From a virus: DNA of 26,385 nucleotides. The stretch covers positions 1 to 26,385 of the IMG/VR virus record IMGVR_UViG_3300034190_000720; one strand, given 5' to 3'. Below, in pieces: positions 1 through 22,402 of this stretch; positions within the stretch are counted from its first letter, which is position 1; every line of letters starts with the position of its first letter. The notes beneath the pieces were generated by a model. That model was not told the origin of the DNA, ran no database searches, and saw only the letters and a program-made list of their open reading frames with translations. Made by a program: the position numbers and the translations under genes.

Positions 1-310
1 TAAAAGTTTTTCCTAAAATATTTATTTGTCTATCGCCTTTATTCTCTATAATTAAATCAGCTAACCTATCTCTTCCGAGATATTCTGAGGGTGCAGCACC
101 TTCATTAACCTTATTAGGTTCTGAAGATACAACATGTGAGTCAGCAGCCTGGATTTGCCAGAAGGTAGATTGTAAAACCTTACCTCCATTTAATCCGCCT
201 GTTGCAGATAAGAAAGGAGTTCTTTGACCACCTACACGGAATAGCTCTCCCGAAAAGTTGTTAATCTTTTGGGAGTAAAGTGTGTCACCTGTCAGCGTAA
301 TTGCTGCCAT
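1..310 (-). CDS. Major capsid protein, N-terminal part (cut by window edge)
   Basis: About 103 codons are visible, starting MAAITLTGDTLYSQK. The ATG at 310 has an excellent GGAGG ribosome binding site (317-321), seven bases away. The pattern near residues 30-55 (RTPFLSATGG, then a Trp-Gln in STFWQIQAADSH) resembles the N-terminal segment of HK97-fold major capsid proteins of the DUF5309/SU10-like group, where an invariant TPFL-type motif precedes a W-Q/T element. That family match is from memory of the motif, not from a search. The gene follows a scaffold-like gene by 41 bases, the usual scaffold-capsid order, and is last in the visible minus-strand operon. The identification rests on motif and position. 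A different head protein is possible but less likely. Confidence 0.7.
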   Translation of the reverse strand, partial: MAAITLTGDTLYSQKINNFSGELFRVGGQRTPFLSATGGLNGGKVLQSTFWQIQAADSHVVSSEPNKVNEGAAPSEYLGRDRLADLIIENKGDRQINILGKTF

Positions 311-351: not shown

Positions 352-819
352 TTATTTTTGTTGTTGTTTTTGTTGCTCCATGAAGTTTAATTTAGCTTTA
401 ATTGAGTCTTGTGTAGAAGCTGTTTTTAAAGCATTAACTAATTCTTCATTAGCATCAAGAGGAACATCTGAACGTGAATTTGCATCAAGTGCAGCTACTC
501 TAGCACGAGCATCATCTTGAACTACTGTTTCAGGTGCAGGTTGTGTTATTTCCTGTACTTGTCCACTAGATTCATAACCATACTCATCTTTAGCAAACTG
601 TGCGATAGATTCTGTATCAACAGGCCCATCATACACTTGTTTTAACGCCTTACCAAAACCATTGTTAGTTGATAATCCTAACTGACCAAAGACATTATCT
701 ATTTCCTTATCTTTATAAGAAGCTAGTTCTGCCTCAAGTTTTTTGATAGATTCATCTTTTCTATCAATAGTCTCTCTCATTTGTTTTACACCGTTCTCTG
801 GTGCATCAAATTCTTCCAT
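352..819 (-). CDS. Scaffold-like head assembly protein
   Basis: A 155-residue acidic protein with no membrane segment. Residues about 12-42 form a charged heptad-like stretch (QMRETIDRKDESIKKLEAEL) predicted to be a coiled coil. The rest is rich in Asp, Glu, Gln and Ala, and the C-terminus is MEQQKQQQK. Small, acidic, coiled-coil proteins immediately upstream of the major capsid gene are typically scaffolding proteins that guide procapsid assembly. The start is fixed by a GGAGG site at 826-830 in front of ATG 819. It is the first gene after a roughly 200-base structured leader, and with the capsid gene may form a separately transcribed unit. Function is inferred from position and composition only. 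Confidence 0.65.
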   Translation of the reverse strand: MEEFDAPENGVKQMRETIDRKDESIKKLEAELASYKDKEIDNVFGQLGLSTNNGFGKALKQVYDGPVDTESIAQFAKDEYGYESSGQVQEITQPAPETVVQDDARARVAALDANSRSDVPLDANEELVNALKTASTQDSIKAKLNFMEQQKQQQK

Positions 820-1024: not shown

Positions 1025-2056
1025 CTATTCTTCAATAAGTCCAGTAAATTGTTTACCTTTTTTAGCAGCTCCTGTTGTCACTCCTTGTGTAGATGCGTAT
1101 TCAGCAAGATATCTGTTGACTCTTTCTGTAAGATTAACGTCACCTAAAGCTGCTTCTTCTAATGTATTTATATCTAAATCTCTACCTATACTTGTAGCTT
1201 GACTTATTGTAGAACTTGCATTTGAATACAAACTTCTAGCTGTTTTAAAATCTAATCCTCTAAGTCTTAATTCTTTAGCTCTAGCAAATGAAGTACTAAA
1301 TCCTGCTGTAGTTCCTTGAGCTTGTATTTTTAAAGTATTAATTTGATTTTCTAAAACACCATCTTCAATATCTTTATTAATTAAAGCACCAAATATAGCA
1401 TCATCAGTAGCTTCTATACCATATAAATCAGCAAATAATTTTTTAACTTCTGGTATATCATCAACAACTTCGTTATAAACTAAAGCAAGTCGTTCTTCAA
1501 ATTCAATTGGAGCTGTACCATTAGTAATCATTTGTTCAAACTGTTTTGTAAACATTGAAGTATCTTCTATTCCATATTCAGATAAAGTAGATTTATAAGA
1601 CGCTATATTACTTAAAGCTTCTGCTTCTGTTTTAATTAATGTACCGTCTTTTCTTTTTAAAAATCCAAATTGTTTTTCCCAAGCTTTAGATGTATTACGT
1701 ACAACTCCTAATGCTATATCTGCTTTTCCGTGTTTAGCCCATGCTCTTGCAAAGTCTTCAAGTATTTCATCATCCATATATTGATATAAAGCTTCAGCAG
1801 TAGCTAATCCTTTTTCTAAACTAAATTGTGTTCCAGATACTGGTGAAGTAGTATCTTCATTTTGAGGATTCCATACAGCTGTTGTTCCATCTGATAAAAC
1901 TACAGTACCATCTTCATTATATTTAACTACATCTGTTCCTTGAAATTCATTTAATTGACTTGTTTCTACCCAATTTTGTGATTTATAATCTTCTACTAAT
2001 GCAGAATCTACCATTGCATATGACCCAGTGGGTGTTCTCATTTGTACTAATGCCAT
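1025..2056 (-). CDS. Virion-associated protein of unknown function (343 aa)
   Basis: The N-terminal ~75 residues (MALVQMRTPTGSYAMVDSAL..., then VVLSDGTTAVWNP) look beta-rich. The remainder is largely helical and acidic. The C-terminal third (VVDDIPEVKKLFADLYGIEATDDAIFGALIN..., then RAKELRLRGLDFKTARSLYSN) resembles a helical segment seen in large tail/virion proteins of marine and actinobacterial phages, but I cannot name a family. The start overlaps the stop of the upstream gene as TAATG, so translation is probably coupled. It ends in TAG at 1025, directly against a promoter-like sequence. Position between internal-virion-type genes and the scaffold gene suggests a head or connector role. Confidence 0.6.
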   Translation of the reverse strand: MALVQMRTPTGSYAMVDSALVEDYKSQNWVETSQLNEFQGTDVVKYNEDGTVVLSDGTTAVWNPQNEDTTSPVSGTQFSLEKGLATAEALYQYMDDEILEDFARAWAKHGKADIALGVVRNTSKAWEKQFGFLKRKDGTLIKTEAEALSNIASYKSTLSEYGIEDTSMFTKQFEQMITNGTAPIEFEERLALVYNEVVDDIPEVKKLFADLYGIEATDDAIFGALINKDIEDGVLENQINTLKIQAQGTTAGFSTSFARAKELRLRGLDFKTARSLYSNASSTISQATSIGRDLDINTLEEAALGDVNLTERVNRYLAEYASTQGVTTGAAKKGKQFTGLIEE

Positions 2057-3252
2057 TAACTTCTCCTTCCTGTAGTGTATTCATCTGTTCTAATTACATT
2101 TGTCATACCAGCAGTACTTAAAGCTGATGCTAATTCTGTAGCAGGGTCCATATATCCACGTTCTAATCCTGCAAGTTTAAGTATTTCTTTACGTTTAGCT
2201 ACATCAGGTTCTACTAATATTTGGTCTATAATACCATCACCTTTTTCTGGTGCTATACCCCATTCATTTTCAGCTAAAGCTACAGCATTACCATAAATAT
2301 TTTGCCAAGGAATTTCTTTGTCCCAATTATTGTTAAATGCAAATCTTTCATTTTTTAATTTTTCAATAAAATTATCATACCATTTTGGGTCTGTTAAGAA
2401 TTTACCAGCTAAATTATCAATATCAGCTAGATAAGGAGCATGTAATTCTTCAGGTAACCATGTATCTAATGCACTTTCAACTTCATCATGACCTGCAATA
2501 GACATTGTTACAACACCATTTTCTAATACATTTTTAAAATCATCATCTACTTCAAAGAGAGAATTTTTTTGAGTTGCTCCAGTTAATTGTTGTAAAGTAT
2601 AATTAGAACTCCAAGCTGTACTAGCCATTTTATTAGCTACCCATTCAATTGTATCGTCATCTAAAGATGCTTCTAATCCTAATAACATATTTTTAACTGA
2701 ATTAATATTTTCTTTAACCAGTTGTTGTTTACCTAATTTGTCACCTTTATATGAACGATATTGATTGTACATAGATTTTGTATATCCTTCTTCATTCAAA
2801 ATAGTTAAAAATCTATCATCTATTTCAAGATTAGATATAAAGTTATCAGAGTCTTCAATTATTAATTCTGTTAGTAAAGATTGAAAATCACTTCTTTTAG
2901 CCCATGGGTCCTCATCATAATGTTTACTGACGGCATCAATTGTATCTTGAATAATAAAAGAATTGTCATTTATATCGGAAATAGAACCTGCGTTCCATAC
3001 TTGTCCACTATCTTCTAAAGCTTTCCATTCTTCTTCAGTGTAAGTAATAAAACCTTCTATTATTGTTTTTAAAGTACCATCTGAGTTAAATTCAAGTTCA
3101 GGTGCATTAGTAATATTTTCTAAAGCATCCATAGTTAAATCCCAATAATATACCATACTTGTGTTTGGGTCTGTGTAAGCTAAGAAATATTCTCCTCCAA
3201 CTTGTATTAAAGTTGTACCTTGTGGTCCAAAATCTATTTTATAATCACTCAT
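2056..3252 (-). CDS. Virion-associated protein of unknown function (398 aa)
   Basis: The first ~45 residues repeat short hydrophobic/aromatic strands (KIDFGPQGTTLIQVGG, EYFLAYTD, MVYYWDL). This resembles the small beta N-terminal module of the next gene in the operon. The remainder is helical, acidic and rich in Trp and Asn, with no catalytic motif I recognise. The C-terminus reads RTDEYTTGRRS. The start (ATGAGTGA) overlaps the stop of the 799-residue gene by eight bases, and its own stop overlaps the next start (TAATG). It is probably made in step with its neighbours as part of one virion assembly. No function can be assigned from sequence. Confidence 0.6.
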   Translation of the reverse strand: MSDYKIDFGPQGTTLIQVGGEYFLAYTDPNTSMVYYWDLTMDALENITNAPELEFNSDGTLKTIIEGFITYTEEEWKALEDSGQVWNAGSISDINDNSFIIQDTIDAVSKHYDEDPWAKRSDFQSLLTELIIEDSDNFISNLEIDDRFLTILNEEGYTKSMYNQYRSYKGDKLGKQQLVKENINSVKNMLLGLEASLDDDTIEWVANKMASTAWSSNYTLQQLTGATQKNSLFEVDDDFKNVLENGVVTMSIAGHDEVESALDTWLPEELHAPYLADIDNLAGKFLTDPKWYDNFIEKLKNERFAFNNNWDKEIPWQNIYGNAVALAENEWGIAPEKGDGIIDQILVEPDVAKRKEILKLAGLERGYMDPATELASALSTAGMTNVIRTDEYTTGRRS

Positions 3253-5644
3253 TATCTTTATCCTTTGGGAACATATTGTTCCATCCTTTAGCTATTGTAT
3301 CACCTACATGTCTAAATCCAGGTGTAACTCCCATTTGTGGAAATGTTTCTTTCCAGGTATTTTTAAATTCTGGGTTTCTTTTTAAAAACCACTCATCTAG
3401 CCAATAGCTAGGCATAAGTCGTACAATCATACCCATCATTATACCACCATTAATCTTAGCATTTTCCATCATATCTTCTTCTAAAGTATCAACTCTTTTA
3501 TTAAATTCATCATAGTTACCAGTTAAAAGCATTGCCTGTGCTGTTTCAGGAACTGTTAAAGCAGAAGTACCAGCAGCTATACCACCTGATGCAATTGCAG
3601 TAGCAAATGTTTGTAATTCATATTTAATTAATTTAGAAGCTAACGAAGCTGCACCTGCTATACCAATTCTTCTTAATACAGTTTCTGCTGCTTGTTCTAT
3701 AGGAACTATAAACCATCCTGGTAAATTTTTAAGAACATCTTGAACAATAGAATCATCAATTTTTATATCATTTATTTTAGTTTCTACGTCTGCTGCCATA
3801 GCACCTACTGAACTACCAGGAATATATTTTTGTGTTTTACTCAACCATTCGTTTCTTAATCTATCTAATTTTTCTTGTTGTTCAGGATTAATAGGAACTG
3901 TATCTGGTGGCATTGGTTCACCTTTTAACCAAGCTTCGTACATAAGCATTGTTTCATCAAAGAATCTTGTTTTAACAATAACTTCTTTATGTTTTGATTC
4001 ATGTGAAAAAGGGTTACCCATACCTTGTCCACGACCAAATACCATATCTGCTTGTGATTTATTATTTACTATTTCTACAGTTAAATTAGGATATTTTTCT
4101 TCCATAATTTTTTTATAGGAATTTGCATGATTAGTTATTGAATTTTTATCTGAATAAGGATAAAATATTTTAACTACAGAATTTTCTACAGCTTTTGTTC
4201 CACTAGCACTATTACCTTGAACTGAATCTATTATTAATTGTTGTGCTTCTTTACCTAACTCTTCTGTACCATAAGACCTATTACCAGCAACATTCAAAGT
4301 TTCTATATTATTTTCTATCATCCAATTTCTTAACTGTTCAGGAGTTTCTGGATTTTCTATCCAAGGTTTATCTCCAGATGCTTTTTTAGTTGCACCATAG
4401 CCTGTACTATTTCCTTCTCCAAACCATACTGTACCATCAGCATTTTGTGCATTAGCTTTAGTTCTATCAGGATAGTATTGAGATTCTATTTGTTCCCATT
4501 TACCACTGTCTACAAACTCTTGAAAATTAGGACTATTACTTCCTTCAGGAACTACTTTAAAACCTTTATTAACTGTACCACCATAATCTAAACCTAATAC
4601 CTTTGCAGCTTCAATACCATATTGGTCTACATTTTTTTGCATACCAGATATTATTTTAGTTAGCTTTAACTCAGTAGGTTTTGAAGGTACACTACCAATC
4701 ATGTTTATAGCATTATTTAAATAATCTTTAAATCTTTGTGGTAATCCTACACCTGCACCAGTAGCAAAACCACCTGCAGAAACTTTAATAGGTTTTCCTA
4801 TATCTAAAGCTTTTTGTATCTGTTCATCTACATGTTGTTGAAATCTAGCAAAGTTATCATCAGTATCTGCAAAATCTTGTGTTCTAGAATATCTAGTATC
4901 TATACCAATAGCATTAGGTAATCCTCTAATTACTGCTTGTGTTTTAGTAGGTGTATGTTGTGTATTAAGTCTATCATTTGTATTATCACCAAATAAATAG
5001 GTATATTCAGTATCAGCTGCAACTTCTGCTCTATCCCAAAATTTATCCACTTTAATTACATTTTCAACCTCATCAGTTACTTTTACAAAAGCATCTAATC
5101 CATTATCTCTTAACGCAGTTAATATACGTGGCATTTCTTTAGTCCATATATCTGCTTGTCTATTAGGTATGTTATGTTCTATTGTCATATTTTCAGTGTC
5201 TAGTAATTTTTGATATGCTTCTGGATTTTGTTTGTACATAGAAGTTACTATCTGTTCCATTAACTCAATGCTAATTTCTTTATCTACTTTTTGACCAGCT
5301 ATTTTATATTGAACATCTGAAACTCTTACATATTTGTTGTATACATTTTCATCAAATGTACCTGACTTGTTAGTTTGATATGCATGTTCTACATTTCTAT
5401 AAGGTTTATCTTCAAATACAAAATCTCTAGGTGCAAAATTACTTAAATGACTAAATTTAGCATCACCACTATACGCATTAGCTATCTTAGGTTCATTTAA
5501 AGGCATCTGTTTTTTTTCGGCTAATTTAGCTTGTACACGTTTTTTTCTAGCTTCACGTTTTAAAAGCTCATCAGGGTCATATAATTCCCCATCTGGTCTT
5601 TCTGTAAATTTACTTATTAAAGTATTATTAACATCCTGTAGCAT
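3245..5644 (-). CDS. Four-domain polyvalent virion protein: NADAR, FGDN/PNAIG, molybdenum-carrier-like, DUF4326-like
   Basis: Seen in the sequence: residues 1-50 are a charged linker. Residues ~57-180 match NADAR (HLSNFAPRDFVFEDKPYRNVE-type segment ending in EHAYQ at 86-90, later D165-I-W167). Residues ~212-318 match a phage domain with LFGDN (217-221), VIRGLPNAIGI (238-248) and GAGVGLPQRF. Residues ~328-475 match the putative molybdenum carrier family (IISGMQKNVDQ, LGLDYGGTVNKGF, DGTVWFG, then ETLNVAGNRSY at 448-458). Residues ~488-575 resemble DUF4326 (FGRGQGMGNPF at 536-546, MYEAWLKG at 568-575). Residues ~640-745 are Ala/Gly-rich with amphipathic or membrane-like stretches. NADAR enzymes hydrolyse ADP-ribose linkages, including ADP-ribosyl-guanosine. 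The other three domains have no firm activity. The late-operon location implies a virion protein injected with DNA; that is inference. The start overlaps the preceding stop (TAATG). Confidence 0.8.
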   Translation of the reverse strand: MLQDVNNTLISKFTERPDGELYDPDELLKREARKKRVQAKLAEKKQMPLNEPKIANAYSGDAKFSHLSNFAPRDFVFEDKPYRNVEHAYQTNKSGTFDENVYNKYVRVSDVQYKIAGQKVDKEISIELMEQIVTSMYKQNPEAYQKLLDTENMTIEHNIPNRQADIWTKEMPRILTALRDNGLDAFVKVTDEVENVIKVDKFWDRAEVAADTEYTYLFGDNTNDRLNTQHTPTKTQAVIRGLPNAIGIDTRYSRTQDFADTDDNFARFQQHVDEQIQKALDIGKPIKVSAGGFATGAGVGLPQRFKDYLNNAINMIGSVPSKPTELKLTKIISGMQKNVDQYGIEAAKVLGLDYGGTVNKGFKVVPEGSNSPNFQEFVDSGKWEQIESQYYPDRTKANAQNADGTVWFGEGNSTGYGATKKASGDKPWIENPETPEQLRNWMIENNIETLNVAGNRSYGTEELGKEAQQLIIDSVQGNSASGTKAVENSVVKIFYPYSDKNSITNHANSYKKIMEEKYPNLTVEIVNNKSQADMVFGRGQGMGNPFSHESKHKEVIVKTRFFDETMLMYEAWLKGEPMPPDTVPINPEQQEKLDRLRNEWLSKTQKYIPGSSVGAMAADVETKINDIKIDDSIVQDVLKNLPGWFIVPIEQAAETVLRRIGIAGAASLASKLIKYELQTFATAIASGGIAAGTSALTVPETAQAMLLTGNYDEFNKRVDTLEEDMMENAKINGGIMMGMIVRLMPSYWLDEWFLKRNPEFKNTWKETFPQMGVTPGFRHVGDTIAKGWNNMFPKDKDNE

Positions 5645-6834
5645 TAACCTCTACCCATCATGTATTGAGTATATGTTTTTTGAACGTCACGTATTGTTTT
5701 TTGATTTTGTAACCATTCTTGTTCTTGATTAAAATCATCTTTTATTTTATCTGTAGCAGCATCTATAGGATTAACTGCATTAAATGCTTCTTTTATTTCA
5801 GGTACTTCAAGTTCAACATATTTAGTTGATGGTTTTTCAGTAACTGGGTCTACAGTAGGTACTGATTTATGTGTATTGTAAACTTCATCAGCTCTTAAAT
5901 ATTTATCTTGTGCTACTAAAGCTGATACCCATGGTGACCAGTCTTCAGCTATATCTTTAATAATGTTATCTTTATATGTATCACTCATTTGTTCACCATA
6001 TAAAGAATAATATAAATCTTCTATATCTCCTATAAAATCTGAAGGAACAGGTTGTTTATTTTCATTTTTAATTTCTATAGCACGTTCAACATCAAAATTT
6101 CTTTTACCTAATTGATTTAACTGTCCTAATTCCATAAAAGCTAATTGAAACATTTCTCTACTTAAAATTTGATTGTCACTTAATTTATCAGTAGCTCCAC
6201 CAAAAATACTATTAACTTGACCTCTACCTCCAGATTTCCAAGATTTTAAATTATCTATTGCTTTTGTTCTAGCAATACTACCTTCTTCAAAATCTTCATA
6301 TTCTTGCATAACGTATTGAAGAATACCATCTATTAATCCTTGAGTAATAGGACCTTTTACACCGTTAACTTCTCCACCAAGTTGTTCATAATCAATTAAT
6401 CCATAACTCACAGCCATGTCTTGTATTCTTTGTATTTGTTCTCTATTTAAAGTATCGTAAAAAGATGTAGCAAAATTTTCAGATGGAAATATCTTTGTCA
6501 TATCTACAGTAGCTATTTCAGGTTCACCATTAGTTATTATTGGATTACCAGCACTATCTTTTTTAGTATAAGTTCTTGTATCTGGATTAGAAACACCACC
6601 ATAACCATCATAATTAAAACTTTCATCATTATTATCCATGTTTGCCTTAACAAAACTGTTATACAAAGTTAAAAATGCTTGAACAGAACCTTCACTCAAA
6701 GAAGACATTTGTTCTTTTAGAATGTCTACATTACTTGTAGTCAAAGAATAATTTCCTGGATTAGCAAATTGCTCAGTTAAAGAAGCCGATAATGACTCAT
6801 TTATTAATTCTATATCTTCTGGACTTAACGGCAT
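5644..6834 (-). CDS. Virion-associated protein of unknown function (396 aa)
   Basis: A mostly helical, acidic protein (starts MPLSPEDIELINESLSASL, ends YTQYMMGRG). No transmembrane segment or catalytic motif is visible. Its size, composition and place between the giant protein and the four-domain protein suggest an internal virion or ejection-complex component. The ATG at 6834 directly follows a TAA (6835-6837) closing an open frame that continues from the giant gene, and its own TAA overlaps the next ATG. The Y..Y/GR ending recalls the ends of two neighbours (YNKYLGQRREMGY and EYTTGRRS). Function unknown. Confidence 0.6.
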   Translation of the reverse strand: MPLSPEDIELINESLSASLTEQFANPGNYSLTTSNVDILKEQMSSLSEGSVQAFLTLYNSFVKANMDNNDESFNYDGYGGVSNPDTRTYTKKDSAGNPIITNGEPEIATVDMTKIFPSENFATSFYDTLNREQIQRIQDMAVSYGLIDYEQLGGEVNGVKGPITQGLIDGILQYVMQEYEDFEEGSIARTKAIDNLKSWKSGGRGQVNSIFGGATDKLSDNQILSREMFQLAFMELGQLNQLGKRNFDVERAIEIKNENKQPVPSDFIGDIEDLYYSLYGEQMSDTYKDNIIKDIAEDWSPWVSALVAQDKYLRADEVYNTHKSVPTVDPVTEKPSTKYVELEVPEIKEAFNAVNPIDAATDKIKDDFNQEQEWLQNQKTIRDVQKTYTQYMMGRG

Positions 6835-7059: not shown

Positions 7060-10000
7060 TTATAATTCTTCAGCTTCTTCCCAATATTCCATAAATTCAT
7101 TAAAACCTTGACCTGATTCATATTCTTTAGCAAAATCTAAAGTAGTCCATTTATCACGCATTTCTTTAAATCGTTCTTTAACACTAGCTTGTTCAGTCTG
7201 ACCATAAGAAGCTTGAAATCCAGGATGTGTTTCAATTAAAGCAAGTCTAAAAGCTTTAATGTGATACTCAGCTTCTGCGGGACTCATTTGTCTATTCTTT
7301 ACTAATTGTTGTGTTTGTGTTTTAAACTTGTCATATTTAAACCAAGCTACAGTATCGTTAGCAGCTCTTAAAAAAACTTCTGGATTAACAGTAGCTTGAG
7401 CTATCATATCAGAATATGTTCTTTCATTTTCAGGATTTTCTGTATTTAAATAATGATATGTTATAGGTAATTGATTTATTTCATCTATATGTTTATCTTT
7501 CCAAACTTTTAATTCTTGGTCAAAAACTATAGCAAATGGTGCTTTATTTTTACTACTTGTAAGAATATATCCATGGTCTAAACCAATTGTGTTTGCAAAT
7601 TCTTCAGCTGCAGCTCTATGGTCTCCATAATGTTCTTGAACTAAATCATCGTAATGTTGTGCTAATACTGCAGTAGCCCACCATTTACCAGATTTATCTT
7701 GTACAGCACTTCTTATTACAGGTCCTGTTGGTACTGGTGTTCCTGTAAATTGAAATAAACTTCTTACTAAACTAAACCATCTAGCTTCGTGTGCAGAATA
7801 CATCATTAAAGCTCTATCTAATACTTCGTTAGATAATTCACCTTCTTCATACTTATAAGGCATATTTCCATTTTTTTGATGCCATTCAAGCATTTCTTTT
7901 TGAGATGCTACTTTTCTTACGCCATCCCAATTAGGTAGAAGTTTTTTTATGTACTTATCTAATTTACCGTTTTCTAAATAGATAATATCACTATTAGATA
8001 TTTTTGCATCTTCCCAAAATTTAATAGTAGTTTCAGCTCTTAATGAGTTCATCTTGTTACTCATATCCCATTCTATAAAATTGTTATCTGAATCAACATA
8101 CGTATCACTAAATTTTTCAACAAATATTTGTGCTATATCTAAAGGAGTACCTGCAACTCTTGCCCATTTAAGCCAAGGTATATTTCCTATAGTATTTAAT
8201 GCTTCAGCCATTGAATCTGGTGGAGGGAAAGCTCCAAAAAATTCATCTTGAAACTCTTGGTCAAAACCAACCATTTGTCCAAACTTACTGTCAAATAACA
8301 TATTTTGTGCATATTGAACTAAAGGACTACCAGATGGAAATCCCTGTGTACTTACCATGTTTACACCACCAGCAAAACCTACTAAATTTTGTCTCATTCT
8401 ACCGTCTGTTCCAAAAGCCATATCCATATGCATTGGTTGAGCAGGATAAACAAATACAGTTTCACCTGTTAATGGGTCTTCTTGCCATCTACCTTGACCG
8501 TAATAAGTATTATTACCACCCCATGATTGCAAAGCATTTTGTGCAGCGTCTGCTCCTCTAATAGTATATGGATTAGCTGCAACAGCTTTAGACCACCTTT
8601 TACCCATTTCAATAAATACTTCTGGGAAAGGAATTATATTTCTAGTAACTTCTGATATTCTGTGTTTATTTTTTGTATCATACAAAACAGCTTTCATTTG
8701 TTGTACAGCATAAGAGTTAGCTAGATTACTCCAACTTTCATAATTATTTATACTTCCAGATTTACCTAGACCTATTGTTCCATTTAATTCATCTATAATA
8801 TAACTAGGTACTTTTGCTTTAATTGCTTCATCTAAAAATTTCTTTTGTAACTTAGGTGTAAATTTATCAAAGTGTGCTCCTATTTTTATCCATCTATATT
8901 GTTTGAAAATAGGACTACGGTTTAATCTTCCAGTTGGTGACTGTAATAAAAACTCAAACCAATTACCATGAACATCACTCATTGTATCAACTAATTTTTG
9001 TATTTTTTCTTGAGCAGGTGCTGATGGAACTACTACATCTCCAAAATTATAAACGAACTCATTAGCATCATCTTTTTTATTTACATAAGTTAAAATAGAT
9101 TCTTTTAATTCTTTTTGGTTTTTAACAGTATATTTTTCATACGGATTATCTGAATCCCATTTAGCAGCTAATTTAATATCTTTTCCATTAGCATCTTTAT
9201 ATTTACCATAAGCTATACCTTCTCTTAATTCTTTTGAACCCGTAAAAGTATGAGATACGTCATGTGAATATTCTGCACCATTAACACCTGCTTCTATTCT
9301 TGAATAATGTATACCTTCTGTCATTTTCATTCCAGTACGCATACGTATTTCATTTTCACGAGCAAACAAATAACGTAACCAATTTTCTTGAAGACGAATA
9401 CTATTGTCTTTATTTGATACATATTTAGGTCCTGTAAGGTTTATTAATCTTTCACGTAATTTAATAGCTTCAGCAGTTTTTGACCATTTAATTATGTCAT
9501 CAGGATTACCATTTTCCATTTTTGCTAATGCTCTTGAAATAGGGTCATTATGTAATTTTAAAAATTGAAATAAATATCCATCTACAGCCCAAGGATTATC
9601 TGCAGTTACTGTTTTATAATCAATCATTTTTTTATTAATAGATGCTTGTTTAAAACCAGAGTATGCAAGTTGTGCATTTATAGCTTCATGAAAATACTGT
9701 GACTGTGTTACTTCATTTATATCTTCACCAGAGTCAATAAGTTTTTTAGCTAACAATGATATTGGATTGTATTTAGCACCTTTAGGAACATAACCATAAG
9801 AAAACAACCAAGCAAAATATTTATCTGGTCTATCAAACATTCCAAACAATTGAGGAAATACTGAAAAGAATAACTGTTCTTCTAAGATAACACGTAATGT
9901 AAGTGCTGGTTTAGCTATTAACCAAGGTTTTAACAAATCATTCATATAAAAATTTGCTACTGTATCTATTGTTCCACCTTTAGGATTAGCAGTAGGTATT

Positions 10001-12747
10001 TTTAATCCTTTATTTTTAGCTAAACTTTTAGCAAATGCTGCTGTTTTATCCCAAAATGCTGCATCTTCTAAGTCTGGGATAACATCAAACATATCAGACA
10101 ATACTCTGTTTAAAGCTCTATTGTTTGTTAAAGGAGCTCCTTGTTGAGCAGTCTCTGATATTTTTGTAACTGATGGAATAAAAGTAGTATCACCAGTAAG
10201 TTCATCTACAAAACGTGGTGTCCATTGGTCATGCATCATATTACCTTCAGGACTTGTTAAGTAATTAGTCATTTGTAAACTTGAATTTCTTTCTTTTCTA
10301 ATATAATCTCTTAACCATTTAGCTTTACCCAATCCTTTTCTTTGAGCTACCATAAGAATATCTGTATCAAATAATTCATGTGCAAATTCATCAATGTTAG
10401 TAACAGTATGTTTCATTTCTGTAAATTTAGTTAACATATGGTCAGCCATTTTGGTACTGTAACCAGTGTTTAATAAATGATTTACTAAAGTTCTATAAGC
10501 ATCTTTTCTATTACTATATGACAATGTACTTTGTGGTTGTATAGAAAAAGCTTTTTTAAATCTTGGACTCATACCTGCAGTTAACTCAGAATAAAATCCA
10601 AGTCCTCTTTGAGTACTTAATTCTCCTGTTGCTTCAAACAATTCAAAATCTGCTTTAGATACATATTCCATATCAGTTTTAGGTTTTAATCTAACGTTAT
10701 TAATCATATCTGCAGAAAATCTTTTACCTGCTCTATATGTTTCATCTATTGCACGAATTGTTTTATTAATACCTCTTCCTGCTATTGAGCCTAAAGTAGC
10801 TTGAGCAGTTTTATTTCTTAAATTAGCACTTAACCAACGTCTTCCTTTAGGCAAACTATCTAATTGAAATGCCATATCCATTCCAGGCATTTGAACTCCA
10901 TCACCATACATTCTTTTAAACACTTTTAACATAGATTCTTTATTGTCAATATTGGCCATCATTACTTGTATTTGTTCTGGAAAATCTCTAGTCCAAGGGT
11001 TTTGATTTAATTCGATTAAAGATTTATTTTTAACAAGAGCATCTATCTGCCCAGCATCATCTAACATAGTTGTAATATCATCTGCTGTTTTTGAAAATGC
11101 TCTAGGTACCCATCCACCTATTAATCCCCACTCTTTTTTTAATCTACCAGTTTGTTTACGTGCGTCTTTTAAACTTTTAGCTAAAGGTTTTAAAAGTTTA
11201 GTGCTACCATAATCATCAAAAGTTTCTATAAATTCATCTGCGTTTTTTAATTTTTGTCCTGTTATAGGATTTTGTTTATTAGTTTTAATCCAATCGTTAA
11301 TCATTTGTTTCTTTTTAATTGGACTCCATAATTCATTATCTGCATATTGTGCAAGTCTATTAGGAGATTTACTAAGTTTTTGTAGTTTTTGTATACCTTT
11401 AATTGTTTTAAAGAATCCAACTTCAGTCATAAGTCTTAAAGTACCGTCAATCATTCCTGAAGTATTTTTGTAAGCTTGTGAACCTACTTCAAACTTAAGA
11501 CCTGCAGAATATCTTCCATGTGAATATGGCACTTTAGTACCCATTTGTTCATTAATATTCCATACTCTATTTTTTGTATATTCCTCTGCAAGTTCAGGTG
11601 TTTGTATAAATCTTCTACCTGCAAACAATTCTATTTCATTTGGTTTTTGTATTGATTGGTAATTAATATCTCCATTTAAATTAGGTTTAATTATTTGTTT
11701 ACCTTTTTTATTATAAAACCATTCAACATATTCAGCTTTAGTCATTTCACCAGATGTAACTAAATCATGAAACAAAGGGTCATCTTCAGCTTTTACTGAC
11801 ACTACAGAAATATAATTTTTAGTATTTATGTTTACAGGTTTTCCTCTTCTAACTTGATTTATCATTTCTAATACATAAGGTGAACCACCTCTTTCTGCAC
11901 CTTCTTGCCAAGCTTTAATCCAACCTTTTGTTTCTTCTAGCCAATTTTCTTTTTGTCCAAAATCAGATTGATTAACTATATAGCTACCTTCAAAATCAAT
12001 AGGAACAAATTCTTTTGCATAATCTAAAGTTTTACCTTCTTCAATAAATCTATCTAATGCATTCATTTGTTGAGCATATGCAAATACACGTCCAGCAAAT
12101 TGTGGTTTATTATCAGGCAATAAAAACTGTCCACCTGGTACCGCAAGTAATCCTTTTTGCATCCAGTTTAAATCTTGAGTATTTCCTTCGTTTAGAAGTT
12201 CAAACTTATTTGTTTCTTTATTATATTTAATTGTGTCGTTTTCATATTTACCAATAAAATGTGGAGAGTATTTAACTAATGTGTCACCTAAACCTTCAAA
12301 CAAAGCCATTGTCCATAACGAAGCAGTTCTAATAGGAGTAAGAATAGTTCTAACATCTCTCCTTCTTTCTTTCCACATTTGCTCTGGGTCATTTTCTTTA
12401 CCACCTACAGTATTAAAATAATTTTGTCCCCAATCAATATCTGGACCATGTCCATAAAGACGTCTATTTTCTTGTACATTAATATAATTATTTGCTTGAA
12501 CAGCCATCATTGTATTTTGATATCTCTCAGCCATATCTTGAAATGCTTTAGAATCTATAGGTATATTAGTTTGTTGAGCCATAGGAATTATTACTTCAGG
12601 AGGAAGAATTGCATATCTTTCTGATATTGCAGTAAACCTAGTTTCAAATTGTGGATTAATGTCTAAAAAATGTATAGCTTGTTGTTGTCTTTGACGTTCT
12701 CTAACGCCTTGAACAGCTACATCTTTGGCAGCAAATGCTTCAAACAT
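7060..12747 (-). CDS. Giant (1895 aa) internal virion / ejection-type protein
   Basis: One uninterrupted frame with no recognisable enzyme motif: no lysozyme/transglycosylase signature, Walker box or RNA-polymerase motif was found by eye. It is rich in helices and Trp/Tyr/Phe. Notable segments are RTILTPIRTASLWTMALFEG near residue 140, a hydrophobic stretch near 930-980 (LLKPWLIAKPALTLRVILEE, then LFFSVFPQLFGMF), and IIPFPEVFIEMGKRWSKAV near 1380. An F-P-F/E...RW-type segment of this kind occurs in large internal proteins of other phages. The size and the place after portal and small head genes fit a protein stored in the capsid and ejected with DNA. It starts at ATG 12747, overlapping the preceding TAA (TAATG). 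Confidence 0.65.
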   Translation of the reverse strand: MFEAFAAKDVAVQGVRERQRQQQAIHFLDINPQFETRFTAISERYAILPPEVIIPMAQQTNIPIDSKAFQDMAERYQNTMMAVQANNYINVQENRRLYGHGPDIDWGQNYFNTVGGKENDPEQMWKERRRDVRTILTPIRTASLWTMALFEGLGDTLVKYSPHFIGKYENDTIKYNKETNKFELLNEGNTQDLNWMQKGLLAVPGGQFLLPDNKPQFAGRVFAYAQQMNALDRFIEEGKTLDYAKEFVPIDFEGSYIVNQSDFGQKENWLEETKGWIKAWQEGAERGGSPYVLEMINQVRRGKPVNINTKNYISVVSVKAEDDPLFHDLVTSGEMTKAEYVEWFYNKKGKQIIKPNLNGDINYQSIQKPNEIELFAGRRFIQTPELAEEYTKNRVWNINEQMGTKVPYSHGRYSAGLKFEVGSQAYKNTSGMIDGTLRLMTEVGFFKTIKGIQKLQKLSKSPNRLAQYADNELWSPIKKKQMINDWIKTNKQNPITGQKLKNADEFIETFDDYGSTKLLKPLAKSLKDARKQTGRLKKEWGLIGGWVPRAFSKTADDITTMLDDAGQIDALVKNKSLIELNQNPWTRDFPEQIQVMMANIDNKESMLKVFKRMYGDGVQMPGMDMAFQLDSLPKGRRWLSANLRNKTAQATLGSIAGRGINKTIRAIDETYRAGKRFSADMINNVRLKPKTDMEYVSKADFELFEATGELSTQRGLGFYSELTAGMSPRFKKAFSIQPQSTLSYSNRKDAYRTLVNHLLNTGYSTKMADHMLTKFTEMKHTVTNIDEFAHELFDTDILMVAQRKGLGKAKWLRDYIRKERNSSLQMTNYLTSPEGNMMHDQWTPRFVDELTGDTTFIPSVTKISETAQQGAPLTNNRALNRVLSDMFDVIPDLEDAAFWDKTAAFAKSLAKNKGLKIPTANPKGGTIDTVANFYMNDLLKPWLIAKPALTLRVILEEQLFFSVFPQLFGMFDRPDKYFAWLFSYGYVPKGAKYNPISLLAKKLIDSGEDINEVTQSQYFHEAINAQLAYSGFKQASINKKMIDYKTVTADNPWAVDGYLFQFLKLHNDPISRALAKMENGNPDDIIKWSKTAEAIKLRERLINLTGPKYVSNKDNSIRLQENWLRYLFARENEIRMRTGMKMTEGIHYSRIEAGVNGAEYSHDVSHTFTGSKELREGIAYGKYKDANGKDIKLAAKWDSDNPYEKYTVKNQKELKESILTYVNKKDDANEFVYNFGDVVVPSAPAQEKIQKLVDTMSDVHGNWFEFLLQSPTGRLNRSPIFKQYRWIKIGAHFDKFTPKLQKKFLDEAIKAKVPSYIIDELNGTIGLGKSGSINNYESWSNLANSYAVQQMKAVLYDTKNKHRISEVTRNIIPFPEVFIEMGKRWSKAVAANPYTIRGADAAQNALQSWGGNNTYYGQGRWQEDPLTGETVFVYPAQPMHMDMAFGTDGRMRQNLVGFAGGVNMVSTQGFPSGSPLVQYAQNMLFDSKFGQMVGFDQEFQDEFFGAFPPPDSMAEALNTIGNIPWLKWARVAGTPLDIAQIFVEKFSDTYVDSDNNFIEWDMSNKMNSLRAETTIKFWEDAKISNSDIIYLENGKLDKYIKKLLPNWDGVRKVASQKEMLEWHQKNGNMPYKYEEGELSNEVLDRALMMYSAHEARWFSLVRSLFQFTGTPVPTGPVIRSAVQDKSGKWWATAVLAQHYDDLVQEHYGDHRAAAEEFANTIGLDHGYILTSSKNKAPFAIVFDQELKVWKDKHIDEINQLPITYHYLNTENPENERTYSDMIAQATVNPEVFLRAANDTVAWFKYDKFKTQTQQLVKNRQMSPAEAEYHIKAFRLALIETHPGFQASYGQTEQASVKERFKEMRDKWTTLDFAKEYESGQGFNEFMEYWEEAEEL

Positions 12748-13190: not shown

Positions 13191-13377
13191 TATAAAAATC
13201 TCTTGTAACTACAATAAATATTCCTGGTATTGGTTGTACAATATCCATAACATCTTTGTCTGTTAATTCCATTTCTTTTATTTCACCATATTCTTGATGT
13301 ACTAAATCCCAAAATTCAATATCAAAATAATCTTGCATATTTCTATATCCCGAACGCTTGAGCCATTCCTGGTACAT
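13183..13377 (-). CDS. Small protein (64 aa) after the portal gene
   Basis: Start chosen at ATG 13377 because GGAGG lies five bases before it (13383-13387). A longer GTG start at 13389 would put this site inside the coding region. The 64-residue product (MYQEWLKRSGYRNMQDYF..., ending TRDFYNE) is acidic with a hydrophobic IPGIFIVV segment near the C-terminus. It overlaps the portal gene by 35 bases and the next gene by eight. It could be a head-tail connector accessory protein, but no family is recognised. Confidence 0.6.
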   Translation of the reverse strand: MYQEWLKRSGYRNMQDYFDIEFWDLVHQEYGEIKEMELTDKDVMDIVQPIPGIFIVVTRDFYNE

Positions 13378-15130
13378 TTTGTCCTCCACCCATTAGTTGT
13401 TGTTGTTGCATTTGTTGCTGAATCATCATTTCTTCTTCAGGTGACATCTGCGGTTCTTGAGGAGTATAAAACTGCTTCATAATATCTGTAATAGCAGAAG
13501 GATACTCATAAATAGCTATAGCAGCCATTGTAGCTGCAGGGTCACCTTGTGCAGACCTAGCTAAAATACTATCAAACAATACTTGTTCAGCTTTGTTTTT
13601 ACGTATACGTTCTTGTACTTTAGCTATATTTTCTAAACCATCAATGTTATCTTGTAATGTTTCTACATCTATAACACCTGCTTGTAACAATTGCAAACCA
13701 GTCACAATTTTTTGTGGTTCATCAAATCCAGCCATAACACCATAGATACGTCTAGTTCTAAAGTCTCCACCTATATCTTGTAATGCATGGTAGTTTTCAC
13801 TAAAAGCAGCACCGTTAATAAAACCTGCCATAGGTTTTTTAATTACTCCAGTAGTGTAAGATAATACAACATCCATTTCTAGACGTTTTTCATCCATTTG
13901 AACTATTGCATGTTTAATAACATCCCTGTATTCAGATATCATTAATGACATTGTGCTATTTAATTCTGATAACCCAGCACCAGTAACAAAAGAGTTAGGT
14001 GACTGTGAGTCATCAGTAACTGGATAACCACCTACCATACGTAATTGTCTTTCCAATCTATCGATTTGTTGGAACAATTGATACGGCATATTGTTCATTG
14101 GTTTAGAAACTTGTGTACCAGGAGCGAGATAGTTTACCGCAAATCTACCTTTTCTGTATTGTCCGGATTCTATCTCTCCTGATATGTTTGTTTCTGTAAA
14201 CACAGAATCTTCCATCGCAATTGCAGACATTATGTTAATTTTTGCCATCATTGCCATTAGTCCTATTACGTGGTCATATTGACCTTTAAGTTGGTCAAAA
14301 GAAACTTTCTTCATAAATACAAATGGAGGTGTAGATAATACGTTTGGTATAAAATCTAAAATCATATTTCGTTCTGGGAACACTACATAAGTACCACCTT
14401 GGTCATAGTATTCAACAATCCTTACACCAGAGTATGTATTATCTTCCCACGCTTGTTCTCTATTGTTTTCATATGATAAGAAAGGTGAAGCATTATCAGT
14501 TTGTGCATCTTCAGCATCTTCGTCTTGTTTTAATATTTCTTTTGCAAATTCAGGATATATCTGTGCAAGTTTATATCTAGGTACACGTCTAACTACAGCC
14601 ATTTCTCTTGGTTGTTGGTCAGGACCAAAGTTTCCTGGGAATGTATCATAAGGGTCTCTTAGTTCAGCACTAGGATACAAATGACCATTTTTATCTAACT
14701 TGCTAGTAATTACCCAAGCACAGAAACCATAACCAGGTAACCACCTAGCAGCTTGTTGTAATTGGTTAAGTAAATTTTGTTTTTCGTCATAGCTAGTAAC
14801 AATACGTTCTAGCTTATCTGCTCTTGCTTTACTACGCATAGAGTCATTATCATTAGGTACATCTACTCTAACTTGAGGTATTCCTGAAATTTTTTGTGCT
14901 AGTCGGTCAATACCAGACTGAAGCATATTAGGAGCTGGTAATAAATCAGCATCAGATGTTTCCATTGTATCGCCTAATAAAGCTTTGATACCATCTGCAC
15001 CACCATTAAGAATAGATTTAATTCTAGCTTTTTGAATTTGTCTTTCTTGTACTAATTTACCCGAAGTTAATTCAGCAGCATTTTTAATAATTTCTTGATA
15101 GGTTTTTGCTCCAATGTTCTCTATCCCCAT
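13343..15130 (-). CDS. Portal protein
   Basis: A 595-residue protein directly after the large terminase, overlapping it by ten bases, with the length and organisation of phage portal proteins. These form the dodecameric DNA gate at one capsid vertex. The N-terminal half contains the usual mixed region with PNMLQSGIDRLAQKISG, QLQQAARWLPGYGFCAWVI and the AELRDPYDTFPG segment. A long helical middle follows (FQQIDRLERQLRMVGGYPV; SELNSTMSLMISEYRDV). The last ~40 residues are a Gln/Met-rich tail (QQQMQQQQLMGGG). Gene order terminase-portal and these segments support the call. No structure-level confirmation is possible here. Confidence 0.85.
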   Translation of the reverse strand: MGIENIGAKTYQEIIKNAAELTSGKLVQERQIQKARIKSILNGGADGIKALLGDTMETSDADLLPAPNMLQSGIDRLAQKISGIPQVRVDVPNDNDSMRSKARADKLERIVTSYDEKQNLLNQLQQAARWLPGYGFCAWVITSKLDKNGHLYPSAELRDPYDTFPGNFGPDQQPREMAVVRRVPRYKLAQIYPEFAKEILKQDEDAEDAQTDNASPFLSYENNREQAWEDNTYSGVRIVEYYDQGGTYVVFPERNMILDFIPNVLSTPPFVFMKKVSFDQLKGQYDHVIGLMAMMAKINIMSAIAMEDSVFTETNISGEIESGQYRKGRFAVNYLAPGTQVSKPMNNMPYQLFQQIDRLERQLRMVGGYPVTDDSQSPNSFVTGAGLSELNSTMSLMISEYRDVIKHAIVQMDEKRLEMDVVLSYTTGVIKKPMAGFINGAAFSENYHALQDIGGDFRTRRIYGVMAGFDEPQKIVTGLQLLQAGVIDVETLQDNIDGLENIAKVQERIRKNKAEQVLFDSILARSAQGDPAATMAAIAIYEYPSAITDIMKQFYTPQEPQMSPEEEMMIQQQMQQQQLMGGGQNVPGMAQAFGI

Positions 15131-21688: not shown

Positions 21689-22402
21689 ATGGCTGAACAA
21701 GACTGTTGGGACTTAATTAAACAAGTACTAGGTAAATCAAGGCGTGTATTATTATACGGGCCACCAGGTACAGGTAAAACATATAGTGCTGTAAAGCAAA
21801 CAACACCATTAGATATGAATGGTAACCCTAATGTATATCAAATTACTATGACAGAAGATACTGCTAGTGCAAACTTAGAAGGTTTTTATAAACCATCTAG
21901 CACCGGTACATTTCAATGGCATGATGGTATTGCTATACAAGCATGGCGTAATGGCGGTAGATTGGTTATAAACGAAATAGACCACGCTTCACCAGACGCA
22001 ATGACATTCTTACACGCTATATTGGATGACCAAGACATAGCAATGTTGACACTAAACAATGATACTAAAGAAACTGTAAGACCTGCTGAAGGTTTTCAAG
22101 TAGTAGCAACTACTAACAGTCCACCAGAATCATTACCACTTGCGTTAAAGGATAGATTTCCTGTAAAAATACATGTCGATAGTATTCATCCAATGGCAAT
22201 GGAACAATTTCCAGATGAATGGCATGATGTTATAACAGACACAACAATGGTAGATGACGCTGAAGATAGAATATCTGTACGTGCATGGAAAGAATTTTTT
22301 GACTTACAGTCACAAGGTTTTACAGCACAAACTGCAGGTAAATTAGTATTCGGTGCAAATGCTACTGAATTAATTGACGCAATAGAATTAAGTAAAGCGT
22401 AA
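21689..22402 (+). CDS. MoxR/CobS-like AAA+ ATPase
   Basis: A 237-residue single AAA+ module. Walker A is GPPGTGKT (24-31), Walker B LVINEID (92-98), sensor 1 is the Asn in VVATTN (138-143), and an arginine finger candidate lies in KDRFPV (154-159). The compact size and the WRNGGRLVINEIDHASPD context are typical of MoxR/CobS/GvpN-type ATPases. These remodel or load metal into partner proteins together with a VWA protein. Its stop overlaps the start of exactly such a VWA partner (TAATG), so the two are surely co-translated. A good AGAAAGGAG site precedes ATG 21689. Confidence 0.88.
   Translation: MAEQDCWDLIKQVLGKSRRVLLYGPPGTGKTYSAVKQTTPLDMNGNPNVYQITMTEDTASANLEGFYKPSSTGTFQWHDGIAIQAWRNGGRLVINEIDHASPDAMTFLHAILDDQDIAMLTLNNDTKETVRPAEGFQVVATTNSPPESLPLALKDRFPVKIHVDSIHPMAMEQFPDEWHDVITDTTMVDDAEDRISVRAWKEFFDLQSQGFTAQTAGKLVFGANATELIDAIELSKA

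What the first reader, a model, noticed from the sequence alone, without database searches (positions are those of the whole stretch)
5090..5480. NADAR domain as a possible injected eraser of DarT-type ADP-ribosylation
The domain keeps the SNFAP, EHAYQ and D-x-W elements of NADAR, but the usual W-G-x-G after the Asp reads WTKEM. Known: NADAR proteins paired with DarT toxins hydrolyse ADP-ribosyl-guanosine in DNA, and DarTG systems block phages. Inference: an eraser carried in the capsid would act before host defence modifies incoming DNA.
Basis: partly seen in the sequence, partly recalled or inferred. Interest (0 to 1): 0.7.

Follow-up and report, generated by a model that had tools for sequence, protein, structure and literature searches.

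The report
Swappable phage-particle arsenal gene carrying NADAR
A gene lying among the particle-building genes of an uncultured phage encodes an ADP-ribose-removing (NADAR) domain as one of several enzyme modules that related phages swap in and out of the same gene, so it is probably a delivered counter-defence arsenal rather than a single eraser of one known bacterial toxin.

Summary
The NADAR domain is real and looks catalytically intact. It matches the solved ADP-ribose-bound NADAR 8bau at Z 11.8 and keeps the catalytic Glu (E86), Lys (K93) and the phage-type His (H157). The 'missing' WGxG is a trait of phage NADARs, not a lesion: T4 gp30.3, which hydrolyses ADP-ribosyl-guanine in vitro, lacks it too.

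The larger finding is the gene. The NADAR is one module of a 799-aa protein (NADAR, DUF7831, cpYpsA SLOG, weak DUF4326-like part, helical C-terminus) in a fixed slot between the portal-side and scaffold/capsid genes of a phage family. In relatives the slot gene ranges from absent to 959 aa. Domain-length DNA blocks (83-95% identical) are shared between otherwise unlike slot genes. Most recognised cargo belongs to the NAD/ADP-ribose repertoire (NADAR, SLOG, Nudix, DUF4326-like); 28 of 45 slot clusters have no recognised cargo.

The 'eraser carried in the capsid' reading is partly supported: gene position fits packaging, which was not tested. DarT1 as target is possible but unproven; soluble ADP-ribose signals are equally open. 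Virion-packaged phage NADAR effectors were proposed in 2022 (PMC9503650); the swap slot is a new variant.

The parts
3245..5644 (-). slot gene, 799-aa multidomain protein; overlaps the upstream gene (ending at 5644) and the downstream gene (starting at 3252)
   Evidence: ORF list; slot position in relatives
5102..5482 (-). NADAR domain (residues 55-181)
   Evidence: Pfam, PHROG, AlphaFold2, Foldseek, VIA, local profile
5387..5389 (-). E86, equivalent of E43 (P. nicotianae) / E88 (E. coli C7)
   Evidence: alignments; residue roles from PMC11543638
5366..5368 (-). K93, equivalent of K50 / K95
   Evidence: PMC11543638
5174..5179 (-). E156-H157 dyad at the third catalytic position (Glu in YbiA, His in phage NADARs)
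   Evidence: PMC11125620
5303..5305 (-). K114 of KxxG, at the place of P. nicotianae K75 / E. coli C7 K115 (DarT1-rescue lysine); hand alignment
   Evidence: KxxG in 61 of 68 assessable segments; PMC11543638
4703..5056 (-). DUF7831 domain (residues 197-314), unknown function; fold not identified
   Evidence: Pfam PF25176 E 2.1e-10; fold ambiguous
4232..4654 (-). cpYpsA SLOG domain (residues 331-471)
   Evidence: Pfam PF12694 E 1.5e-12; PDB 3imk E 6.8e-5; Foldseek 3imk 1.1e-5
3875..4180 (-). DUF4326-like segment (residues 489-590), weak
   Evidence: PF14216 E 0.0015, under cut-off; swapped as a block
3245..3763 (-). helical C-terminal 'carrier' region (residues 628-799) shared with slot genes that carry other or no recognised cargo
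   Evidence: profile comparison; helical, low confidence; hydropathy
5644..6834 (-). upstream slot neighbour up396 (396 aa), conserved in synteny
2056..3252 (-). downstream slot neighbour dn398 (398 aa), conserved in synteny
1025..2056 (-). dn343, 343-aa protein, PHROG 8424, conserved in synteny
352..819 (-). scaffold-like protein (PHROG 7813), conserved in synteny; name inferred from position and length
2..310 (-). start of the putative major capsid protein gene (cut by the contig end); name inferred from position and length
7060..12747 (-). giant, 1895-aa protein next to the portal, conserved in synteny; function unknown
13343..15130 (-). portal protein (match to annotated portal proteins of Streptomyces phages)
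   Evidence: 152 relatives in viral contigs
15121..17049 (-). terminase large subunit
   Evidence: PHROG 38 E 2.1e-67

Best explanation
The NADAR is one interchangeable cargo module of an accessory protein made with the head and packaging proteins of a tailed-phage family. A helical C-terminal region acts as a carrier that puts the protein into (or onto) the particle. The cargo enters the host with the DNA and takes apart ADP-ribose-based host defences before phage genes are expressed. The NADAR module is an active ADP-ribosyl N-glycosidase; SLOG, DUF4326-like and, in relatives, Nudix modules bind or break down related nucleotide products. Phages swap modules by recombination to follow the host's defences. 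Shown here: NADAR fold, conserved catalytic residues, fixed slot among virion genes, module swapping at DNA level. Inferred: packaging, injection, catalysis, substrate. For the NADAR substrate I put guanine-linked ADP-ribose on incoming DNA at about 0.4 and soluble NAD/ADP-ribose derivatives at about 0.35.
For: NADAR fold. Catalytic residues: Glu and Lys in 71 of 71 distinct NADAR segments; His in 62 of 71, the other 9 being alignment gaps; Glu, Lys, His and Trp columns invariant in the 42-row alignment. Slot: same order portal - giant - up396 - slot - dn398 - dn343 - scaffold - capsid in the relatives; 47 distinct flank/slot pairs with both flanks, slot 0-959 aa, absent in 4 of 47. Overlapping start and stop with both neighbours. 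Swapping: DUF4326-like block 95.4% identical over 371 bp between L002 and L132, DUF7831 94.0% over 349 bp between L004 and L132, cpYpsA 87.9% over 413 bp between L003 and the window, Nudix half 91.8% over 834 bp between L133 and L143, whose carriers are 32% identical. Recognised cargo domains lie in slot genes only: of the 3,083 ORFs in window + L002-L149 the two ORFs with hits that were not counted as slot ORFs (L091, L105) precede dn398 and are slot genes on contigs without the up396 flank. Carrier: profile comparison NADAR-type against Nudix-type 87.7%, against no-cargo type 95.0%, seven control pairs 0.1 to 1.3%. Published precedent for packaging: PMC9503650.
Against: No proteomics or assay. 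Gene position does not prove packaging. 28 of 45 slot clusters have no recognised cargo, so the ADP-ribose theme covers at most 17 of 45, and DUF7831, A1S_2505 and PHROG 9995 are of unknown function. Five of the seven carrier types (C to G) could not be tied to the main one by profile comparison (0.2 to 22%). The DUF4326-like call is under threshold, the DUF7831 fold unresolved, the model of the C-terminal part poor (pLDDT 63.5). The maximum hydropathy of the carrier is modest (window 1.35; 6 of 43 clusters reach 1.6), so membrane crossing is not indicated by sequence.
Confidence: 0.6

Rival explanations
1. Dedicated DarT1 eraser: the injected NADAR removes ADP-ribose that host DarT1 puts on guanines of incoming single-stranded DNA.
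For: Catalytic Glu, Lys and His kept. K114 sits where the rescue-essential lysine K115 of E. coli C7 NADAR sits; YbiA, which does not rescue, has Ala there by my hand alignment (sequence). In the order linked to the phage by a MAG contig, DarT1-type NADAR in 2 of 42 genomes, one directly next to a DarT, against 0 of 396 and 0 of 395. Sister slots carry a domain (PHROG 9995) that may be a DarT1-type NADAR, never together with this NADAR (0 of 45 clusters).
Against: T4 gp30.3 is active in vitro but did not rescue from DarT1 (PMC11125620). Adenosine-contact loop shortened. The host link rests on MAG contigs, one of them in a different phylum. DarT found in only 2 of 42 genomes of that order, one beside a Macro protein, i.e. 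not the NADAR kind. PHROG 9995 as NADAR is not statistically established.
Confidence: 0.3
2. Destroyer of soluble NAD/ADP-ribose derivatives: the modules break down signals or toxins made by TIR, RES or similar host defences (the view of Iyer et al. 2022).
For: SLOG, Nudix and DUF4326-like partners act on or bind nucleotides according to PMC9503650. TIR_2 proteins occur in 6 of 42 genomes of the linked order, 5 over cut-off, more often than DarT (2 of 42). The NADAR loop that holds the adenosine end is short, so the substrate pocket may differ.
Against: No activity of any NADAR on cyclic ADP-ribose is in the passages I read. The host link is weak. The SLOG domain may bind rather than cleave.
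Confidence: 0.35
3. Not injected: the slot protein is made late and works inside the infected cell (NAD/nucleotide housekeeping, superinfection exclusion), or is only a structural accessory whose extra domains are decorations.
For: Packaging is inferred from gene position alone. The slot gene is dispensable (absent in 4 of 47).
Against: Catalytic residues are kept across distant relatives, which pure decoration would not need. A late-acting enzyme has no evident reason to be fused to a shared helical C-terminus next to portal and scaffold genes.
Confidence: 0.2
4. Catalytically dead ADP-ribose binder.
For: Pfam score under the curated cut-off; loop shortened; WGxG absent.
Against: E86, K93, H157 and W167 conserved; T4 gp30.3, also without WGxG, is active.
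Confidence: 0.1

Closest known systems
T4 gp30.3 (phage NADAR)
   Same: NADAR; Glu, Lys and His at the three catalytic positions; no WGxG; profile comparison 83.6%
   Different: Stand-alone 152-aa protein next to DNA ligase, not in a virion-gene slot; 22% identity; failed to rescue from DarT1 (PMC11125620)
E. coli YbiA (2b3w) and P. nicotianae NADAR (8bau)
   Same: Fold (Z 11.3 and 11.8); E43/K50-type residues
   Different: Third residue classed as Glu in these; adenosine-contact loop about 7 residues longer (hand alignment); single-domain
DarT1-associated NADAR antitoxins (8bat, PF22397)
   Same: Fold (Z 8.0); Lys at the K115 place by hand alignment
   Different: Third catalytic residue Asp; linked to a DarT; no sequence-profile link to the window NADAR family (0.1%)
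Phage NADAR/SLOG/Macro/DUF4326 fusions of Iyer et al. 2022 (PMC9503650)
   Same: Domain repertoire and the packaging/counter-defence idea
   Different: [quoted passage not shown] here they are interchangeable modules on a common C-terminus in one fixed slot
Polyvalent proteins of Iyer et al. 2017 (PMC5512222)
   Same: Multidomain, virion-gene neighbourhood, predicted injection
   Different: Those combine highly disparate activities (abstract) and the word NADAR does not occur in that main text; here recognised cargo is mostly of one theme and swapped as blocks
crAss-like phage giant proteins (cr130_1, cr131_1, cr272_1)
   Same: NADAR followed by DUF7831 by fold match (Foldseek E 1e-12 to 1e-13; cr130_1 and cr131_1 also tblastn)
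   Different: Much larger proteins (1,278 aa or more in the pieces matched), different phage group

Membership tests
NADAR superfamily | NADAR/YbiA fold | tested here: met
   8bau Z 11.8 rmsd 2.9 over 129; 2b3w Z 11.3; 8bat Z 8.0
NADAR superfamily | Catalytic Glu and Lys | tested here: met
   E86, K93; 71 of 71 segments (the Glu is partly selected by the search pattern)
NADAR superfamily | Score above the curated Pfam cut-off | tested here: not met
   26.7 bits against 35.1; fold and residues nevertheless agree
Phage-type NADAR (gp30.3-like) | His at the third catalytic position | tested here: met
   H157, aligned with T4 gp30.3 His; the window also has E156 as YbiA does
DarT1-associated NADAR antitoxin (PF22397) | Asp at the third position, profile match, DarT next door | tested here: not met
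   Glu-His instead of Asp; no PF22397 match for the window protein; profile comparison 0.1%; no DarT among the 8 window ORFs scanned with Pfam
Guanine-ADP-ribose hydrolase | Removes ADP-ribose from guanine in DNA | not testable with these tools
   needs assay
Virion-packaged, injected effector | Protein present in the particle and delivered | not testable with these tools
   only gene position and overlap
Polyvalent protein | Two or more domains in one phage polypeptide among virion genes | tested here: met
   NADAR, DUF7831, cpYpsA; gene order
Polyvalent protein | Combination of highly disparate activities | tested here: inconclusive
   Recognised domains mostly share one chemistry; DUF7831 and 28 of 45 slot cargos unknown
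DUF4326 | Match over the curated cut-off | tested here: not met
   14.2 bits against 25
cpYpsA SLOG | Pfam match over cut-off and fold | tested here: met
   47.9 bits against 26.2; Foldseek 3imk 1.1e-5

The most novel reading that the evidence does not exclude
The slot is a natural plug-in delivery chassis: one short helical C-terminal carrier (seen nearly alone, 135-154 aa, in some phages) loads into the head and is ejected, and whatever is fused in front of it is delivered. Phages of this family exchange single counter-defence modules in front of it by recombination, choosing among ADP-ribose erasers (two alternative NADAR-like types, never both), SLOG, Nudix and unknown domains, so the slot content is a readable record of which ADP-ribose defences the local hosts use.
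Probability: 0.35. Interest if true: 0.8.

Novelty: new variant of a known kind. Interest (0 to 1): 0.6.

Why it matters
It would tie a large group of uncultured phages to ADP-ribose-based immunity and give a ready list of unknown cargo domains (28 of 45 slot clusters, DUF7831, PHROG 9995) to test as counter-defence proteins. If the carrier alone directs loading, it is also a natural cargo tag for phage particles. It makes the open question 'what do phage NADARs act on' directly testable with swapped natural versions in one protein context.

Tried and rejected
Loss of WGxG as inactivation: rejected, same in relatives and in active T4 gp30.3.

DUF7831 as a Macro domain: fold search gave only Z 4.5 or less, with Macro, phosphatase and unrelated folds mixed; left open. 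DUF7831 and A1S_2505 domains compared by profile: 2.9%, inconclusive, though PHROG 2072 hits both.

PHROG 9995 domain as a DarT1-type NADAR: Pfam PF22397 under cut-off in 4 of 7 fragments (E 0.036 to 0.14) and in the whole L147 protein (0.013); profile comparison 37.8% with one reference but 6.0% with a deeper alignment; no PDB match better than E 0.77. Suggestive, not claimed.

One common carrier for all slot genes: only the main type is supported; types C to G not. In one search several types overlapped, but those profiles were grown on 45 sequences and may drift.

L101 segment as DUF4326: 5.1%, inconclusive, no PF14216 match in that record.

Searches with the two neighbour genes found few loci (4 of 106 and 1 of 277 pattern matches), probably because the peptide patterns were poor; portal and scaffold worked (152 relatives, 80 kept; 59 relatives, all kept).

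A first alignment for the model (A8) put DUF7831 fragments on the NADAR and was dropped for A10.

A paper on phage NADARs countering DarTG1 (name AdfN, recalled) was not found in the held library; I have not seen it here.

Rows dropped: L001 (copy of the window) and loci L008, L009 from slot counts; of the 45 clusters one (L021 13534-13878) is probably the start of the downstream gene and two (L028, L069) are cut. In one search, 87 matches became 71 after identical segments were merged.
Full report
1. The observation. The window is a 26,385-base viral record. Residues 55-181 of an ORF of 799 aa at 3245-5644 on the minus strand form a NADAR domain. Pfam sees it at E 7.6e-6 but under its cut-off (26.7 of 35.1 bits), PHROG 1017 at 3.4e-10. 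A five-sequence profile finds YbiA (2b3w, 1.3e-5) and the P. nicotianae NADAR (8bau, 0.013) in the PDB. An AlphaFold2 model of residues 50-325 has mean pLDDT 86.3; VIA gives 8bau Z 11.8, rmsd 2.9 over 129 residues, YbiA Z 11.3, G. lovleyi NADAR Z 8.0, the next row being 4.5.

2. Catalytic residues. PMC11543638 (section 12 read whole; passages) names E43, K50 and E125 of the P. nicotianae enzyme (E88, K95, D171 in E. coli C7) and says phage NADARs have His for E125. In the window these are E86, K93 and H157, with E156 directly before the His, as in YbiA. Among 71 distinct NADAR segments from the held loci, Glu is present in 71, Lys in 71, His in 62 with 9 gaps, Trp in 54 with 17 gaps. Caution: the loci came from a search with the pattern [SN]VEHAYQ as one of two, so the Glu count is partly by construction; Lys, His and Trp are not in the patterns. 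Of the 53 segments where it could be read, the residue before the His is Thr in 49, Glu in 3, Arg in 1. T4 gp30.3 aligns with Glu, Lys and His and has no WGxG; PMC11125620 (passages read) reports that it hydrolyses guanine-ADP-ribose in vitro but does not rescue from DarT1.

3. Differences in the pocket. By hand alignment on the conserved Gly and on the Met of the next helix (for the phage segments, for 8bau and YbiA), the stretch that holds Y84, D86 and W89 in P. nicotianae NADAR is about 7 residues shorter in the window. K114 lies three before that Gly, where K75 / E. coli C7 K115 lies, which PMC11543638 finds essential for rescue but not for catalysis. KxxG is present in 61 of 68 assessable segments, of 71 examined. 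These two points pull in opposite directions on the DarT question.

4. The protein. It continues with DUF7831 (E 2.1e-10) and cpYpsA SLOG (1.5e-12), the latter confirmed by 3imk in sequence and fold (1.1e-5). Residues 489-590 match DUF4326 only weakly (E 0.0015, 14.2 of 25 bits; also 2 of the 6 other records tested there). The C-terminal part is modelled as helices at low confidence (pLDDT 63.5 for the 474-residue piece).

5. The slot. Portal search gave 152 relatives in viral contigs, 80 kept, 85 to 100% identical; scaffold search 59. The order TerL, portal, giant, up396, slot, dn398, dn343, scaffold, capsid recurs. Of 92 loci with an up396 match, 67 have both flanks, making 47 distinct pairs; slot proteins measure 135-959 aa in 43 of them and are absent in 4. 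The slot gene overlaps both neighbours in the window. Slot ORFs of 90 aa or more number 80, in 45 clusters at 90%. Annotation with local profiles (seeds taken from the hits and from reading the translations) gives: NADAR in 5 clusters (window, L100, L101, L119, L132), PHROG 9995 in 7, SLOG in 9, DUF7831 in 5, A1S_2505 in 3, DUF4326-like in 3, Nudix in 4; 17 of 45 have at least one, 28 of 45 none. NADAR and PHROG 9995 never share a protein (0 of 45). A later locus, L151, has NADAR, DUF7831 and SLOG in the same slot, between up396 and dn398 homologues.

6. Swapping. DNA comparison of slot genes shows blocks that end near domain borders: L002/L132 371 bp at 95.4% (DUF4326-like), L004/L132 349 bp at 94.0% (DUF7831), L003/window 413 bp at 87.9% (cpYpsA), L132/window 327 bp at 83.2% (DUF4326-like), L133/L143 834 bp at 91.8% (Nudix half), L122/L132 469 bp at 84.9% (carrier only). 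In protein terms L133 and L143 share a 99% identical Nudix on carriers 32% identical, with up396 37% and dn398 37%. L143 and L129 share a 91% carrier while only L143 has Nudix. Outside the slot no ORF of window + L002-L149 (3,083 ORFs) carries these domains; two apparent exceptions (L091, L105) precede dn398 and are slot genes.

7. The carrier. The C-terminal parts of NADAR-, Nudix- and no-cargo slot proteins are related by profile comparison (87.7% and 95.0%; seven control pairs 0.1 to 1.3%). Other C-terminal types were not linked (0.2 to 22%). It is more hydrophobic than the cargo (median maximum 1.17 against 0.48), but clear membrane segments are rare (6 of 43 at 1.6 or more).

8. Elsewhere. 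Many of the 80 NADAR relatives kept of 174 lie in very long ORFs (1,000 to 3,400 aa), some with DUF7831 or SLOG. crAss-like phages have NADAR and DUF7831 in large proteins. So the module pair occurs in several phage groups.

9. Host and target. The nearest named phages are Streptomyces phages (TerL 24-28%). In GTDB contigs the portal occurs at 3 places in 2 MAGs, one Actinomycetota, one Flavobacteriaceae; MAG binning of phage contigs is weak evidence, and a marine origin is only inferred from the MAG names (recalled as ocean bins). In the order of the first MAG (42 genomes, sizes 0.6-1.1 Mb): DarT 2, TIR_2 6 with 5 over cut-off, PF08719 NADAR 0, PF22397 DarT1-type NADAR 2. PF22397 is 0 of 396 in a phylum sample and 0 of 395 in the order of the second MAG, though a DarT is present in the second MAG itself. 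One PF22397 hit is a full DarT1-type NADAR next to a DarT (L240, E 2.4e-78; 8bat 1.5e-53); the other is a 59-aa end-of-contig piece; the other DarT sits by a Macro protein (L239). So both DarT1 and TIR proteins are present in small numbers, and neither is excluded as target.

10. Literature. PMC9503650 (abstract, passages and one section read) already proposes that phage NADAR, Macro and Nudix proteins are packaged and that NADAR/SLOG/DUF4326 fusions counter soluble ADP-ribose derivatives. PMC5512222 (abstract and passages) defines polyvalent proteins. PMC11481870 (passages) and PMC12373910 (abstract) show phage counter-defence against DarT and by injected proteins. No held paper names DUF7831, and the listings showed none that describes this slot; most subscription papers and all preprints are not held. 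A study of phage NADARs against DarTG1 is recalled, not seen.

11. Verdict. The domain and its likely competence stand. The capsid-eraser idea is partly supported and broadly anticipated in print. What is new is the fixed, swappable slot with mostly one theme of cargo. Packaging, activity and substrate remain inference.

Noticed in passing
L002, L003, L057, L107, L120, L137, L147 slot genes: PHROG 9995 domain with conserved Glu, Lys and Asp in an order like the DarT1-type NADAR triad; also in 1,000-2,100-aa proteins of other phages. Relationship not established.
   Followed up: partly
L164:132-9899: A 3,255-aa protein with a 2OG-Fe(II) oxygenase (PF13532, E 3.8e-14), DUF7831 and NADAR side by side: domains that could act on modified bases.
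   Followed up: no
L240:1207-2684: DarT directly followed by a DarT1-type NADAR in a small genome of the order linked to the phage family; DarT1-type NADAR not found in a sample of 396 genomes of the phylum.
   Followed up: partly
L036 15673-17100 and L037 10666-11937: Two slot genes 99-100% identical except for an internal stretch of about 50 codons missing in one: a recent deletion or insertion in the cargo part.
   Followed up: no
L231 and L233 (contig PBPX01000048.1): The portal occurs twice on one 54-kb MAG contig: repeated ends, concatemer or two phages.
   Followed up: no
window 21689-23904: P-loop ATPase ORF followed by an ORF with an IDASGSMR stretch (MoxR/VWA-like, read from the translation only).
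   Followed up: no
L136, L138, L139, L141: Phages of the family with no slot gene: up396 ends 0-122 bases before dn398, a natural empty site.
   Followed up: partly
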